Origin: a virus
IMG/VR virus record: IMGVR_UViG_3300027730_000074
Coordinates: 1 to 36,303 of that record
Reading direction: 5' to 3' (one strand)
Length of the DNA stretch: 36,303 nt
The notes under the pieces are model-generated. The model did no database searches. It was not told where the DNA came from and saw only the letters and a list, made by a program, of their open reading frames with translations. Every line of letters begins with the position of its first letter. Position 1 is the stretch's first letter. Both the position numbers and the translations under genes were made by a program. Positions 18,000 through 26,204 of the stretch are shown here, in pieces.

Positions 18000-18857
18000 T
18001 TATGATTTACTTAAATTAAATCTGGTTGTTATTGTTTTTACAGTTGGTATTAGAATTTCTGATATAATATTAACTATTTCTATCGCACTAAAAACAATAC
18101 CTATTAATGGTTCTTTTTTACCAAAACCAATAAACCAGTTTAAAATTTCATCAACCCCTAAGTTAGATGCCGCATCAGATATTAATTCTTTTAAACTATT
18201 AAAAATATTAACAATACTAGTAATGTTTGTAATTTGATTTTCTAATTGCTCTATTGCTAAATTTAATAACTTATCCAACCAATTTTTTTTACACCATATT
18301 AACATTACTGTTAATCCAAGCATTGTTACAAAACCAACCCAACCTTTTGAATTTAAAAATTTATTACCATATTCTAATATTTTATCTAAAAAAATTGTTA
18401 ATTTGTCAGTAAACCCTTTAATTTTAAAACCTAATTTAGTTAAAATATTATTAATTAATTTTTTAATCTCAACTATTGTTTCATTAAGATTTTTTTTAAC
18501 ATTTTCAATAGCTTCTTCCATTAATTTTGGGTCTAATAAAATATTTTTAAATAATATAGCCAATTCTTTTGTGTCTTTAATTGTTTTAATAAGTTGTAAA
18601 GATTTTTCTTTACCTTTTTGAACAACACTACCTAAATAACTATTGATAGAATCAATCATATTTTCAACTATAATTTGTTGTTCGATAACTGTTTGTTTAT
18701 AAGAAAATAAATTATTTTCAAATAAAGATTTATCAACACCTAAAATAGTAGTAACATAATAATCATCTTCTATAAGCAATAAAGAATGTTCTGACAATAA
18801 TTTTTTTTTATTATGTAAGTATAATTCTTCTCTTAAAATTTGTTTTGTACTATACAT
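18000..18857 (-). CDS. Tagged helical membrane-associated protein
   Basis: The product is 285 aa from the ATG at 18857, which overlaps the upstream stop (ATGTATAG); an in-frame ATG at 18881 would add 8 residues. The N-terminus MYSTKQILREELYL has the LRE tag. The protein is Leu/Ile/Lys-rich and helical, with a strong hydrophobic segment WVGFVTMLGLTVMLIW and further hydrophobic stretches (FSAIEIVNIISEILI). It could be an ejected membrane-interacting protein or a tape-measure-like internal protein. No enzyme motif. It sits between the GNAT-peptidase gene and the KKDTG-domain gene in one operon. Confidence 0.7.
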   Translation of the reverse strand: MYSTKQILREELYLHNKKKLLSEHSLLLIEDDYYVTTILGVDKSLFENNLFSYKQTVIEQQIIVENMIDSINSYLGSVVQKGKEKSLQLIKTIKDTKELAILFKNILLDPKLMEEAIENVKKNLNETIVEIKKLINNILTKLGFKIKGFTDKLTIFLDKILEYGNKFLNSKGWVGFVTMLGLTVMLIWCKKNWLDKLLNLAIEQLENQITNITSIVNIFNSLKELISDAASNLGVDEILNWFIGFGKKEPLIGIVFSAIEIVNIISEILIPTVKTITTRFNLSKS

Positions 18858-19581
18858 AAATCTCTGGGTGTAGTCTACCATATTTTCTAATTATGATACC
18901 AGCAACAGCATTTGCTTCGTTTTCAATTGGGCTCCCATCTTCACCATCTATAACAGCGTCTTTAAGTTTTCCATCTAAATTCTGTTTATGATGTACCAAT
19001 TCATGTGCTATAGAACGACACACATCGATTATTGCTCTGTCTTTGACATAAACTACAAGAAAACCAGTTGAATTGTAATACGCAGTTGTTTTTAAATCTG
19101 GAGTTCTCTCAAAAGCTAGTTTAACTTGTACACCATCATTTATCCCTAAAAACTCATTAGCAAAGTTTGTAAAGTCAGCTACTATTCTAATAGCTGACTC
19201 TTCTTTTGTCATAAGAGCTTCTCTAAGAAGTTTTTTTATAATTGGTTTCATGTTTTCATTTAATTTAGGGTATCTTATCATTGAATCCATGAATTCAAAG
19301 TTTTTGTATATGCCTTTATTATGTTTAAAACCGAAACGTTTATAAAATTGAATAAGTCTGTTTTTATTTCCACCAAAATCAGAAGAAGGTGTTAGTGTCA
19401 CTATTTGTTTATTTCTGTCAGCATAATTAACTATTGCTTGCATAATTTTAGTACCCACACCACCTTGTCTAGCTTCTGGTTTTAAAACTATTCTACTAAT
19501 TTTTAAACTGGTTCTATTTTCATAAATATCCAATCCGTCTAGATAATCACTGTAAAGTTTTTTAATTTCATCTTCAATCAT
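18850..19581 (-). CDS. GNAT acetyltransferase - LRE linker - zinc metallopeptidase fusion
   Basis: The product is 243 aa from the ATG at 19581; a TTG start at 19596 is unlikely because it would lie in the promoter-like motif. Residues 1-105 form a GNAT domain with the CoA loop ARQGGVGTKI (about 37-46) and FYKRFGF. Residues 111-122, MKPIIKKLLREA, are a tag-like helix with LRE-Ala. Residues 125-243 form a peptidase domain with AHELVHHKQ (His193, Glu194, His197) and IENEANAVAG as the likely third-ligand helix. Cleavage after LRE would release the peptidase from the acetyltransferase. Confidence 0.8.
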   Translation of the reverse strand: MIEDEIKKLYSDYLDGLDIYENRTSLKISRIVLKPEARQGGVGTKIMQAIVNYADRNKQIVTLTPSSDFGGNKNRLIQFYKRFGFKHNKGIYKNFEFMDSMIRYPKLNENMKPIIKKLLREALMTKEESAIRIVADFTNFANEFLGINDGVQVKLAFERTPDLKTTAYYNSTGFLVVYVKDRAIIDVCRSIAHELVHHKQNLDGKLKDAVIDGEDGSPIENEANAVAGIIIRKYGRLHPEIYV

Positions 19582-19584
19582 AAT

Positions 19585-19594
19585 TATAAATATC
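19585..19594 (-). promoter_or_regulatory. ATATTTATA motif, short-gap class
   Basis: The minus-strand GATATTTATA ends 3 nt before the ATG at 19581 and directly follows the clpC terminator. Confidence 0.5.
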
Positions 19595-19619
19595 AAAAAG
19601 GCCCCAAAAAGGGGCCTTT
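19595..19619 (-). terminator. Rho-independent terminator after the ClpC-like gene
   Basis: GGCCCC-AAAAA-GGGGCC with a T5 run in the minus-strand direction. It separates clpC from the next unit. Confidence 0.85.
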
Positions 19620-19624
19620 ATTAT

Positions 19625-21829
19625 TTATTTAGATTTAGATTTACTACCCTTTATTATTATGGCTTCTTTTTCTTTAATAAAATCTATACTAATTGTTTCA
19701 CCTTCTTTTATGTTTCCATTTAAAATTTCATCAGCAACAGCATCTTCCACATAATGTTGAATGGCTCTGGCTAATGGTCTAGCACCATAAGCTTCATCAT
19801 ATCCTTGTTTAGCCAAGTATTCAACCGCTTCTTTGCTTATTTTTAATTTGAAGTTCATTTCATTCAAACGTTTTTCTAAGCTTTCAACTTCAAGATATAT
19901 GATTTTATGTATATCTTCTTCTGTTAGTCCTCTGAATATTATAGCCTCATCAATACGATTTAAGAATTCTGGTCTGAACTTCTTTTTTAAAGCCTTTTCA
20001 ATTATCTCACGTGCTTTGTTTTCTTCATTAACAATAGTCGCAGCCGTTTCAAACCCTAAGCTCTTTCCAAAAGAATTAACTTCTTTAACACCAATATTTG
20101 ATGTCATGATAATAAGAGCGTTTTTAAAGTTTACTTTACGACCTAAACCATCAGTTAGTTGACCTTCATCTAATAATTGAAGTAACAGGTTGAAAACGTC
20201 TTCATGTGCTTTTTCTATTTCATCAAATAAGATTACGCAGTGTGGTTTTCTTCTTACTTTTTCAGTTAGTTGACCACCTTGTTCGTAGCCAACGTAACCT
20301 GGAGGCGCACCAACCATTCTGGATACTGAGTGTTTTTCCATATATTCAGACATATCCATTCTTACAAGCGCATCAACATCACCATAAACATGTTCAGCCA
20401 ATAATTTAGCTAATAAAGTTTTACCTACCCCGCTTGAACCAAGGAACATGAAAGAACCAACTGGTTTATTTTTATTTTTGATACCGATACGATTACGCTT
20501 TATAGCTTTTACGACTTTAGTAACGGCAGCATCTTGTCCTATAACTTTACCAGTAAGTTCTTTATCCAAGTTCATTAGTCTTTTGCTTTCCTGTGTTGAT
20601 ATTTTTGTCAAAGGTATACCAGTCATCATTGAAACCACTTCAGAGATTAGTTCTACACCAACCACAGTTGTTTTTTTCTCTAGAGTTGCATTCCAATCAT
20701 CCATAGCCGATTGAAGTTGCTCTAGAATTTTTCTTTCTTCATCTCTAAGTTTGGCAGCTTCTTCGTACTTTTGTTTTAAAACCACCTCTTTTTTCTTTTC
20801 TAAGATTTGGCTTTTCTTGATTTCTAATTCTTTAATTTTTTCTGGTTTTTCCAACACAACATTTGTTGTTGCACCAGCTTCATCCAAAACATCAATTGCT
20901 TTATCTGGCATCGACCTATCCATGATATATCTAGCTGATAATTTAACACATTCGTCAATTGCTTCTTCAGTATAAGTTACTTTATGGTGTTTTTCATACT
21001 TTTCTTTGATATTCATTAGAATTGTTTTGGTTTCTTCTAATGTTGGCTCTTCTACCAATACTTGTTGAAAACGTCTTGTAAGTGCTCCATCTTTTTCAAT
21101 ATTCTCACGATATTCATCCAATGTTGTGGCACCAATGATTTGTATTTCTCCACGAGCCAAGGCTGGTTTAAATATATTTGAAGCATCTAATGAGCCAGAA
21201 GCGTTTCCAGCTCCAACAATCGTATGTAGTTCATCAATAAAAAGAACTATGTCTGGGTTTGCTTTGCACTCTTCCAAAACAGCTTTCATTCTTTCCTCAA
21301 ATTGGCCACGATATTTTGTACCAGCAACAATTGATGCTAAATCTAACGTGAATATTCTTTTGTTTATTAGTGTTCTAGGTGCGTCACCATCTTTAATAAG
21401 TTGGGCCAGACCTTCAACAATTGATGTGTTGTGTGATAAAATTCCATTTGTGAAATAACGTCTGTTGGAATTTTCATTTAATTGAAAATCATACATAATT
21501 TCTTTATAACCCAAATTGTTTACTTCTAAAACCTCAGATTCTACTAAATTGCCATTATTATCAGATACCATAACGAACGAACCTATTTTTAGGTCTTTAA
21601 CAAATATTTCAGTTAAACCAACTGCTTCAAAAGTAGTTTCATCATATTCAGTAACAAATACAATATGATTATCAGCACATTTAAGTTCTTTTCCATCAGC
21701 TAATTTTAAATGGTATACTTCATAAAGAATTGTTTCATGTAATTTATCAATTTTTTTAAAACCAGTATCAGTAAGAATACTAAAATTATTAATATTCCAC
21801 GTTTTTGTAAATTTTTTTAATGTTTCCAT
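19625..21829 (-). CDS. clpC: C-terminal part of ClpC-like AAA+ unfoldase, preceded by C-intein
   Basis: The product is 734 aa. Residues 1-134 are a C-intein; residues 135-734 are ClpC from inside D1 onward. D1 begins TSIVEGLAQ, the second half of a Walker A, with Walker B VLFIDE (about 195-200) and arginine-finger region TRRF. A short M-domain-like stretch is seen (QKYEEAAKLRDEERKILEQL). D2 has Walker A GSSGVGKT (464-471), Walker B VILFDE (532-537) and RPEFLNRID. The LGF tripeptide at about 591-593 sits where ClpC carries its ClpP-docking loop. It forms hexamers that unfold proteins for ClpP. Without splicing D1 lacks its P-loop. Confidence 0.92.
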   Translation of the reverse strand: METLKKFTKTWNINNFSILTDTGFKKIDKLHETILYEVYHLKLADGKELKCADNHIVFVTEYDETTFEAVGLTEIFVKDLKIGSFVMVSDNNGNLVESEVLEVNNLGYKEIMYDFQLNENSNRRYFTNGILSHNTSIVEGLAQLIKDGDAPRTLINKRIFTLDLASIVAGTKYRGQFEERMKAVLEECKANPDIVLFIDELHTIVGAGNASGSLDASNIFKPALARGEIQIIGATTLDEYRENIEKDGALTRRFQQVLVEEPTLEETKTILMNIKEKYEKHHKVTYTEEAIDECVKLSARYIMDRSMPDKAIDVLDEAGATTNVVLEKPEKIKELEIKKSQILEKKKEVVLKQKYEEAAKLRDEERKILEQLQSAMDDWNATLEKKTTVVGVELISEVVSMMTGIPLTKISTQESKRLMNLDKELTGKVIGQDAAVTKVVKAIKRNRIGIKNKNKPVGSFMFLGSSGVGKTLLAKLLAEHVYGDVDALVRMDMSEYMEKHSVSRMVGAPPGYVGYEQGGQLTEKVRRKPHCVILFDEIEKAHEDVFNLLLQLLDEGQLTDGLGRKVNFKNALIIMTSNIGVKEVNSFGKSLGFETAATIVNEENKAREIIEKALKKKFRPEFLNRIDEAIIFRGLTEEDIHKIIYLEVESLEKRLNEMNFKLKISKEAVEYLAKQGYDEAYGARPLARAIQHYVEDAVADEILNGNIKEGETISIDFIKEKEAIIIKGSKSKSK
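21428..21829 (-). other. C-intein of a naturally split intein
   Basis: 134 residues (METLKKF... to ...TNGILSHN). Block B is ELKCADNH, with the conserved His but Ala in place of the usual Thr. Block F is IMYDFQLNENSNRRY, followed by block G NGILSHN ending in the catalytic His-Asn. The next residue is Thr, the +1 nucleophile. No homing endonuclease domain is present. Confidence 0.9.
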
Positions 21830-21849
21830 TGTTATTATTGTTATTATTG
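21830..21849 (-). repeat. AACAATAAT repeat spacer at the intein break
   Basis: The 20-nt gap between the two intein halves is made of AACAATAAT-type repeats that also run into the upstream stop codon. In the upstream frame it contains several TAA stops. The downstream ATG is in the -1 frame relative to the upstream gene. Confidence 0.8.
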
Positions 21850-22644
21850 TTATTTGTTATTTAAAAATTCATTTAAACTAATTTTAATAACTTCACCAGT
21901 TATATCGTTTCTAATAACTATATTAGTATCAGAACAAATACACTTACCCACTCCAGGTTCACCAATCAAAACAGGGTTGTTTTTTTTCCTTCTGGATAAT
22001 ATTTGTGAAACTCTTTTAATTTGAACAGAACGGCCAGTTACTGGGTCTATTTCGCCTTTTTCAACAGCTTTAGATACATCTCTACAGAAGTTATCTAAAA
22101 CTGGTGTTTTACTTTTGTTGTCACTTTGCTTTGATTTCTTTTTAAATGATTCACTTTCATCATTAATATTTTCGTTTTCGTATACACTGTTGGTTTCATC
22201 TTTCATATTTTTTATAACATTTTTAAAATTATCGTATGTAACATCATAAAATTCGTTTAACATTTCACTTATATTGTTCTTTTTAGCTAAAATGGCCAAC
22301 ATGATGTGTATTGTATCAATCATATTGTCATTTAATTTTTCACATTCTTCGTCCAAAGACTTTATTAAAGCTTTTGTTTCATCTGAAAACGGAACAGTTT
22401 TTTTATGGTAAACAACAACTCTTGGGGTTATATCACTTCTTTTGAGATGGTCTGACAATCTATCATATAGTTCTGAAGTATTGACTTTTAACGCTTTAAG
22501 TACCTTAACACATTCATTATCATTATCCATCAAGATAGAAAGAACCAAATACTCTGGCCTAACTTTTGAATCATTAAACGATTTCGCCTCTTTAATAGAC
22601 TCGTTAATTATAATTTTAACTTTTGGGTATACTTCTCTGTTCAT
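21850..22644 (-). CDS. clpC: N-terminal part of ClpC-like AAA+ unfoldase, followed by N-intein
   Basis: The product is 264 aa. Residues 1-70 or so form a Clp N-terminal domain ([13 protein letters not shown], repeated in weaker form near [14 protein letters not shown]). After an acidic linker comes the start of D1: [40 protein letters not shown] and [12 protein letters not shown] (ending at 234). Residues 235-264 are the N-intein. The joined extein would be 234 + 600 = 834 aa, close to bacterial ClpC at about 810. A strong host-type promoter drives the pair, which are separated by 20 nt. Confidence 0.9.
21853..21942 (-). other. N-intein of a naturally split intein
   Basis: 30 residues: [16 protein letters not shown] then [14 protein letters not shown]. 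Cys1 is the splicing nucleophile and block A is clear. The very short N-piece is the atypical split position seen in some viral inteins such as the AceL terminase intein. Block B and later blocks are in the downstream gene. Confidence 0.9.
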
Positions 22645-24919: not shown

Positions 24920-25135
24920 ATGGATAACATAGATAAACTAATACAAGAAGGTGAAGCTCATCTTAAACATTATGAAGAAACAAAAGAATCTTTGTTGTCT
25001 GACCCCGATATACCAGCTAAGATAAAAGAAATTCACATCGGTCTTGGAGAAGCTTTGAGTCCAATACTAAAATTATTATACGAACAAAAAGAAAATAATA
25101 AATTGAAAAATGTCAAAAATGAACAACCTAGATAA
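24920..25135 (+). CDS. Small hypothetical protein before thyA
   Basis: The product is 71 aa, helical and acidic in the first half (DKLIQEGEAHLKHYEETKES) and basic at the end. Its 3' end overlaps the thymidylate synthase start by 17 or 26 nt, which indicates coupled translation. No domain is recognised. Confidence 0.62.
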   Translation: MDNIDKLIQEGEAHLKHYEETKESLLSDPDIPAKIKEIHIGLGEALSPILKLLYEQKENNKLKNVKNEQPR

Positions 25136-26204
25136 ACAATATTTAGCACTCTGTCAAGACATTCTTGATAATGGAACCAAAAAACAAACAAGAAATGGTG
25201 AGACCATATCTGTATTCGGTAGACAGATAAGACATTCTATGAAAGATGGCTTTCCACTTCTTACCACCAAAAAAATGGCGTTTAAAACAATGGTAACTGA
25301 GTTACTTTGGTTTCTACGTGGTGATACTAATATTAAATTCCTTGTTGATAATGGTTGTCATATTTGGGATGGTGATGCGTATAAGAACTATTTGAAAGTG
25401 GAAGGAAAAAAGTTCCATGAAAGTACCAAAGAACTTCGCAAATGGGCTACAGTAGAAGGTCCGTTTGGACCTGGTGGTCTTCTTAAAAAAGAAGAATTCA
25501 TCCACAAAATAAAAACAGATGATGAGTTTGCTAAGAAGTGGGGTGAACTCGGAAAGGTATATGGGCATCAATGGAGAAGTTGGGGCGAAAGAAGGCACGA
25601 TTCAATTGATAACGAGTACTTTATTGGTATAGACCAAATTGCAAACCTAATTAACAAGTTAAAAACCAATCCTGATGATAGAAGAATGATTGTCACAGCA
25701 TGGAACCCATCAGAAGTTGATGATTGCGTTTTACCACCTTGCCATTATGGATTTCAAGTTTATACAAGAGAGTTGAGTGAAAGTGAAAGATTTATTTGGT
25801 ATGGAGATAAAATAGGTTCACATATGCATCATGACCATATTGAACAGGAAATGAATGAAAATAATGTTCCAACCAGAGCAATCTCTTTAATGTTTAATAT
25901 GAGGTCAACTGATGTGGGGTTGGGGTTAGGGTTTAATTTAGCTTCTTACGGACTATTATTATTAATGATTGCTAAACAAGTAAATATGGTTCCAGATGAA
26001 CTTATCTATACTGGAGGAGATGTTCATTTATATAGTAATCACATAGAACCAATAAAAATACAATTAGGTAGAGAACCATTCGAGTTACCGACAGTTAAAT
26101 TATCTGATAAAATTGTAAGTGATATTTCAGAATATACACTGGATGATATTATTTTAGAAATTTACCAATACCACCATGCTATAAAAATGCCATTATCTAA
26201 CTAA
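25110..26204 (+). CDS. thyA: Thymidylate synthase with two insertions
   Basis: The product is 364 aa, against about 264 aa in E. coli. It makes dTMP from dUMP and methylene-tetrahydrofolate. Conserved pieces are FGRQIRHSM, the GVYGHQWR-equivalent GKVYGHQWRSWG, DDRRMIVTAWNP, the catalytic cysteine in LPPCHYGFQVY, RSTDVGLGLGFN (Gly where Pro is usual) and GDVHLYSNH. A long insertion precedes GKVYGHQWR, and another of about 35 residues follows QVYTREL (SESERFIWYGDKIG onward). The start may be the ATG at 25110 or at 25119. It supplies dTTP for phage DNA. Confidence 0.95.
   Translation: MSKMNNLDKQYLALCQDILDNGTKKQTRNGETISVFGRQIRHSMKDGFPLLTTKKMAFKTMVTELLWFLRGDTNIKFLVDNGCHIWDGDAYKNYLKVEGKKFHESTKELRKWATVEGPFGPGGLLKKEEFIHKIKTDDEFAKKWGELGKVYGHQWRSWGERRHDSIDNEYFIGIDQIANLINKLKTNPDDRRMIVTAWNPSEVDDCVLPPCHYGFQVYTRELSESERFIWYGDKIGSHMHHDHIEQEMNENNVPTRAISLMFNMRSTDVGLGLGFNLASYGLLLLMIAKQVNMVPDELIYTGGDVHLYSNHIEPIKIQLGREPFELPTVKLSDKIVSDISEYTLDDIILEIYQYHHAIKMPLSN

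What the first reader, a model, noticed from the sequence alone, without database searches (positions are those of the whole stretch)
21425..21945. Naturally split intein inside the D1 Walker A motif of a phage ClpC-like unfoldase
Two adjacent minus-strand genes encode the halves of one ClpC. The first ends GEPGVGK followed by a 30-residue N-intein starting CICSDTN. The second begins with a 134-residue C-intein ending NGILSHN, followed by TSIVEGLAQ. Removing these pieces rebuilds the expected GEPGVGKTSIVEGLAQ. The split point, very early in the intein, is the atypical type described for some viral inteins such as AceL terminase. I do not know of one reported in ClpC. The ATPase cannot use D1 until trans-splicing occurs, so splicing would control its activity. 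The block B Thr appears to be Ala.
Basis: partly seen in the sequence, partly recalled or inferred. Interest (0 to 1): 0.95.

Follow-up and report, generated by a model that had tools for sequence, protein, structure and literature searches.

The report
Split intein in phage ClpC P-loop
A phage carries its protein-unfolding motor ClpC as two separate genes whose products must be stitched together by a two-part self-splicing protein (a split intein) sitting exactly in the ATP-binding loop; it belongs to a widespread branch of a known kind of split intein, some relatives of which cut the same motor into three pieces.

Summary
Minus-strand ORFs 22644..21850 and 21829..19625 encode ClpC up to GEPGVGK plus a 30-aa IntN, and a 134-aa IntC plus TSIVEGLAQ and the rest. 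The joined exteins give an 834-aa ClpC, 90.5% identical to an uninterrupted 832-aa phage ClpC (L212). It is a class 1, atypically split (S2, AceL/Cat-like) intein with conserved catalytic residues; the block-B Ala is family-wide, not decay. Eight other viral contigs carry a D1-site relative, all split early. About 60 further relatives sit at the same GK^T/S position of ClpC D2, TerL, DnaB-like and other P-loops, often with an endonuclease gene between the halves. Two D1 relatives keep that gene, two keep a remnant; in the window only 20 nt remain.

Beyond the finding: some relatives have split inteins in both P-loops, so ClpC is in three pieces (three complete, two cut by contig ends). And all nine D1 inteins have IntN Asp13 with IntC Lys26, a pairing absent from the other 61, which mostly have Lys with Asp. 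This may be a charge swap preventing D1/D2 mispairing (inferred). Splicing and any regulatory role are untested. New variant of a known kind.

The parts
21853..22644 (-). ORF1 coding region: ClpC N-terminal domain and start of D1 up to GEPGVGK, fused to IntN (264 aa)
   Evidence: Clp_N PF02861; phrog_4871 positions 5-232
21853..21942 (-). IntN, 30 aa, [30 protein letters not shown]; Cys1; Asp13 at 21904-21906
21943..21963 (-). D1 Walker A half-site GEPGVGK (N-extein side of the junction)
21850..21852 (-). stop codon TAA of ORF1
21830..21849 (-). 20-nt spacer CAATAATAACAATAATAACA; no homing-endonuclease remnant, no Shine-Dalgarno
19625..21829 (-). ORF2: IntC fused to the rest of ClpC (D1 from Thr, linker, intact D2 with GSSGVGKTLLAK, D2-small), 734 aa
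21428..21829 (-). IntC, 134 aa, METLKK...NGILSHN; block B ADNH, Asp114, His133-Asn134; Lys26 at 21752-21754
21425..21427 (-). Thr +1: the Walker A Thr, expected second nucleophile

Best explanation
This is a class 1, atypically (S2) split intein that interrupts phage ClpC between Lys and Thr of the D1 Walker A motif. ORF1 and ORF2 are translated separately; IntN (30 aa) docks into the near-complete IntC horseshoe (134 aa); Cys1, the Walker A Thr (+1) and Asn134 carry out ordinary trans-splicing; the product is an 834-aa ClpC with a restored GEPGVGKT P-loop plus two released intein pieces. It descends from a P-loop-targeting family of mobile split inteins whose halves are often separated by a homing-endonuclease gene. 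In this phage that gene is absent and a 20-nt spacer remains, so the element can no longer home by itself but its host gene still needs it to splice. Shown by sequence: architecture, empty-site allele, catalytic residues, split relatives, endonuclease decay in relatives, purifying selection on IntC. Inferred: that it splices, that an endonuclease was once present here, and that D1-type charges (IntN Asp13, IntC Lys26/Lys29) keep it from pairing with D2-type split inteins.
For: ORFs and exact junctions. Uninterrupted orthologue L212, 832 aa, 90.5% identical over 832 aligned residues, both P-loops intact; further intein-free alleles L045, L048, L049, L068. In 49 aligned IntCs A52, D53, H55, D114, H133, N134 are invariant. 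AlphaFold2 IntC model pLDDT 91.7; best Foldseek hits are inteins and HINT domains, including atypically split Cat (6dsl) and VidaL (6vgv); sequence match to CatC E 3.4e-7. Eight further D1-site contigs split at the same place (L018, L021, L030, L032, L137, L138, L148, L187); D1 inteins form one clade, 93/99. Endonuclease ORFs of 487-488 aa between the D1 halves in L137 and L148; remnants of its C-terminus in L021 (E 3e-26) and L138 (E 8e-14). IntC dN/dS 0.07-0.24 in eleven pairs, window against L013 0.16. No second ClpC in the 97-kb contig.
Against: No splicing has been observed; sequence cannot prove it. ORF2 has no Shine-Dalgarno sequence (but few genes sampled in this window have one). The Pfam intein score is below its curated cut-off, as expected for a fragment. 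IntN is short and evolves fast (dN/dS against L018 about 0.5 from 30 codons), so selection on it is not demonstrated.
Confidence: 0.9

Rival explanations
1. Dead relic: the intein no longer splices and the two ORFs are the broken remains of ClpC.
For: The endonuclease is gone; no functional data.
Against: All catalytic residues conserved; IntC under purifying selection; both extein halves open and together 90.5% identical to an intact ClpC; no second ClpC copy found in the 97-kb contig.
Confidence: 0.05
2. The halves work without splicing: ORF2 alone keeps an intact D2 and might act as a single-ring unfoldase, ORF1 as a free N-domain protein.
For: The D2 P-loop in ORF2 is intact.
Against: Catalytic residues conserved across 49 IntCs; relatives cut in both D1 and D2 leave no piece with a complete P-loop.
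Confidence: 0.03
3. Assembly or sequencing frameshift in an ordinary contiguous intein.
For: A contiguous D2 relative exists (L020).
Against: Identical sequence in a 97-kb contig; the spacer has several stops and a frame change; eight other D1 contigs are split with different spacers.
Confidence: 0.01
4. Trans-splicing is a regulatory switch of ClpC activity during infection rather than a tolerated parasite (an add-on to the best explanation, not exclusive of it).
For: P-loop insertion means no D1 ATPase before splicing (sequence). Loss of the endonuclease with retention of the intein would fit domestication.
Against: Intein-free close orthologue exists; near-identical D1 inteins in diverged hosts (L021/L138 intein dS 0.14, extein dS 1.42) point to mobility; no evidence of conditional splicing.
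Confidence: 0.1

Closest known systems
AceL-TerL / GOS-TerL atypically split inteins and consensus Cat (PDB 6dsl)
   Same: Short IntN (25-37 aa known, 30 here), long IntC, split after the first helix (S2; PMC13014065), Cys1 (AceL, Cat), HINT fold; CatC is the closest solved sequence.
   Different: Those are in TerL with Cys+1 (PMC11766414); this one sits at GK^T of ClpC with Thr+1 and is only distantly similar (23% identity in the Foldseek alignment).
Fractured genes with split inteins and a free-standing homing endonuclease (Dassa et al. 2009, from memory; AceL NrdHF, PMC7891396)
   Same: Most ClpC-D2 relatives and two D1 relatives have an endonuclease-like ORF between the halves.
   Different: In the window that ORF is absent; the split site is S2, not the canonical endonuclease insertion point.
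P-loop TerL1-a inteins of mycobacteriophages (PMC5050341)
   Same: Insertion between the invariant Lys and Thr of Walker A.
   Different: Terminase host; 'split intein' does not occur in that paper.
Contiguous Ackermannviridae TerL inteins (e.g. Vibrio phage VAP7)
   Same: Closest relatives in named phages, up to 42% identity over IntC, same GK^T site and ADxH block B.
   Different: One open frame, cis-splicing, in TerL.
Class 3-like contiguous inteins at the same ClpC D1 site (L043, L044, L062, L063, L090)
   Same: Same insertion point GK^T in phage ClpC.
   Different: Unrelated element: starts with Ala, Cys in block F, about 365 aa, contiguous.

Membership tests
Class 1 intein (HINT) | Cys/Ser at position 1 | tested here: met
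   Cys1 at 21942..21940
Class 1 intein (HINT) | Block B T-x-x-H | tested here: inconclusive
   His55 invariant; Thr is Ala in all 49 aligned sequences
Class 1 intein (HINT) | C-terminal His-Asn and Cys/Ser/Thr +1 | tested here: met
   SHN|T
Class 1 intein (HINT) | HINT fold | tested here: met
   AlphaFold2 pLDDT 91.7; Foldseek hits to inteins and hedgehog HINT
Class 1 intein (HINT) | Protein splicing activity | not testable with these tools
   needs expression
Atypical S2 split intein (AceL/Cat type) | Two genes, IntN of 15-37 aa, split after the first helix | tested here: met
   IntN 30 aa on a separate ORF; definition from PMC13014065; helix end placed by alignment, not by structure of IntN
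Fractured gene with endonuclease (Dassa type) | Endonuclease ORF between the halves | tested here: not met
   20-nt spacer in the window; present in relatives L137, L148 and most D2 loci
Class 3 intein | No Cys1, internal block F Cys | tested here: not met
   Cys1 present; no Cys in the block F region
ClpC (Hsp100) | Clp_N domain, two AAA domains, D2-small | tested here: met
   PF02861, PF00004/PF17871, PF07724, PF10431; phrog_4871
ClpC (Hsp100) | ClpP-binding [LIV]GF loop | tested here: inconclusive
   FGKSLGFE present in ORF2; position judged from memory, binding not tested

The most novel reading that the evidence does not exclude
Sibling split inteins in the two P-loops of one ClpC have become mutually orthogonal by swapping a charge pair: D1 inteins carry IntN Asp13 with IntC Lys26/Lys29, D2 inteins IntN Lys13 with IntC Asp26. 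Without it, the middle piece of three-piece ClpCs (IntC-D1, extein, IntN-D2) would be wired like a protein-cyclisation construct and could close on itself, or the outer pieces could join and skip the middle. The window would be a two-piece member that still wears the D1 charges.
Probability: 0.4. Interest if true: 0.8.

Novelty: new variant of a known kind. Interest (0 to 1): 0.62.

Why it matters
It adds ClpC to the hosts of atypically split inteins (no such report was found in the open-access library) and yields tens of new natural short-IntN pairs, useful as protein-ligation tools. Genes cut in three by two sibling split inteins pose a sharp question, how mispairing is avoided, for which the sequences offer a specific testable answer (one charge pair). 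The series endonuclease present, remnant, absent shows mobile split inteins losing their mobility gene while the split persists.

Tried and rejected
Frameshift or readthrough joining the ORFs: stops in frame and no slippery heptamer seen by eye. Class 3 assignment: rejected, Cys1 present. Block-B Ala as decay: rejected, invariant in 49 sequences. D2-to-D1 jump as proven direction: the tree favours it, but holding the D2 core as one clade is not rejected (AU p 0.29; window with D2 core p 0.25). Endonuclease family: no useful PDB match; PHROG 22677 of unknown function, weakly phrog_3339 homing endonuclease. IntN alone against PDB: no hit. Dassa et al. 2009 is not held. Contact between IntN13 and IntC26 could not be measured (no coordinates available). 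L006 cannot be counted as an independent virus (identical DNA). One call used coordinates spanning both ORFs and failed.

Full report
What is there. On the minus strand, ORF1 (22644..21850, 264 aa) is a ClpC N-domain and the start of D1, ending GEPGVGK, then 30 residues CICSDTN...NNK. ORF2 (21829..19625, 734 aa) starts with 134 residues METLKK...NGILSHN, then TSIVEGLAQ and the rest of ClpC with an intact D2 P-loop. Between them lie a stop codon and 20 nt, CAATAATAACAATAATAACA; the two ORFs are in different frames. Few of the genes sampled in the window show a Shine-Dalgarno sequence, so its absence before ORF2 is not unusual here. The same 8402 bases occur without a difference in a 97-kb viral contig (L006), in which no second ClpC was found.

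The empty site. A scan with the N-half found L212, an uninterrupted 832-aa ClpC, 90.5% identical to the joined 834-aa extein over 832 aligned residues, reading GEPGVGK|TAIVEGLAQ across the site. Four other intein-free ClpCs (L045, L048, L049, L068) are 77-78% identical and read GEPGVGK|TSIVEGLAQ. Removing the two pieces therefore gives what uninterrupted relatives have.

What the insert is. IntC matches Pfam Intein_splicing from profile position 27 to its end, the consensus atypical split intein CatC (E 3.4e-7) and, as a profile, gp41-1, VidaL and CatC. Its AlphaFold2 model (pLDDT 91.7) matches inteins and HINT domains. In 49 aligned sequences A52, D53, H55, D114, H133, N134 are invariant, so the Ala in block B is a family trait. 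IntN length and position agree with the S2 split site after the first helix, known from AceL-TerL and GOS-TerL (PMC13014065). Cys1 and Thr+1 make it class 1. IntC is under purifying selection (dN/dS 0.07-0.24 in eleven pairs).

The family. Viral scans and one scan of genomes gave 70 distinct IntN+IntC sets. Nearly all lie between Lys and Thr/Ser of a Walker A motif: ClpC D1, ClpC D2, terminase, DnaB-like helicases, clamp-loader-like ATPases and others; host names other than ClpC and the annotated terminases rest on motif reading. By spacer length, 40 have a gap over 600 nt, 23 a shorter one and 7 are contiguous. The nearest named phages are Ackermannviridae with contiguous TerL inteins. The ClpC D1 P-loop is a hotspot: five other contigs carry an unrelated contiguous, class 3-like intein at the same residue, and two a third type, split at G^TGKT.

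The D1 clade. Nine D1-site loci (window/L006, L018, L021, L030, L032, L137, L138, L148, L187) form one clade (93/99) among the ClpC D2 inteins; the direction D2 to D1 is favoured but not established. L137 and L148 keep an endonuclease ORF of 487-488 aa between the D1 halves; L021 and L138 keep only its C-terminal remnant; the window keeps nothing recognisable. L021 and L138 inteins are nearly identical (dS 0.14) in ClpCs that have diverged far more (dS 1.42), a sign of transfer.

Three-piece ClpC. In L018, L021, L032, L137 and L138 the ORF that starts with the D1 IntC runs into a second intein start at the D2 P-loop. In L018, L021 and L137 the D2 IntC and the end of ClpC follow as a further ORF, so three genes make one ClpC; L032 and L138 are cut by contig ends. 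In L018, L021 and L137 the D1 and D2 IntCs are 58-67% identical but the IntNs only 32-44%.

Charge swap. All nine D1 inteins have IntN13 Asp and IntC26 Lys (and Lys29). Of the 61 others, 54 have a basic IntN13, with an acidic (42) or neutral (12) residue at IntC26; none has the D1 combination, and one TerL intein (L190) has Asn13 with Lys26. Because the D1 inteins are one clade, this may be a single event; it is a correlation, and the two residues were not shown to touch. In a published panel, cross-reaction was seen mainly among atypically split inteins (PMC7090010), so a need for insulation is plausible. The window's IntN is D1-like while the middle of its IntC is closest to one D2 group (L007, L013 and others), suggesting recombination between D1 and D2 elements with the start of IntC kept D1-type.

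Reading. Best supported: a working atypical split intein that restores the D1 P-loop by trans-splicing, from a mobile endonuclease-associated family, and here without an endonuclease. Unproven: splicing itself, any regulatory role, and the charge-swap insulation.

Noticed in passing
L018, L021, L137 (L032 and L138 cut by contig ends): ClpC with split inteins in both D1 and D2 P-loops, i.e. encoded in three pieces.
   Followed up: yes
L043, L044, L062, L063, L090: Unrelated contiguous class 3-like intein (starts AQPL, Cys in block F, ends THN) at the same ClpC D1 GK^T site.
   Followed up: partly
L065, L066: A third split intein type inserted earlier in the D1 P-loop (GEPG|C...SHN|TGKT) with an endonuclease-like ORF between the halves.
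   Followed up: partly
L020:3851-4369: Contiguous, presumably cis-splicing D2 member of the family in a single ClpC ORF.
   Followed up: partly
window 25110-26204: Thymidylate synthase of 364 aa with about 90 residues more than the Pfam model; not intein-like by eye.
   Followed up: partly
window 18850-19596: Predicted GNAT acetyltransferase domain fused to a C-terminal part with a metalloprotease-like HELVHHKQ motif.
   Followed up: no
L163:4501-4842: A relative whose IntC frame contains a stop codon; possibly a broken copy or an assembly error.
   Followed up: no
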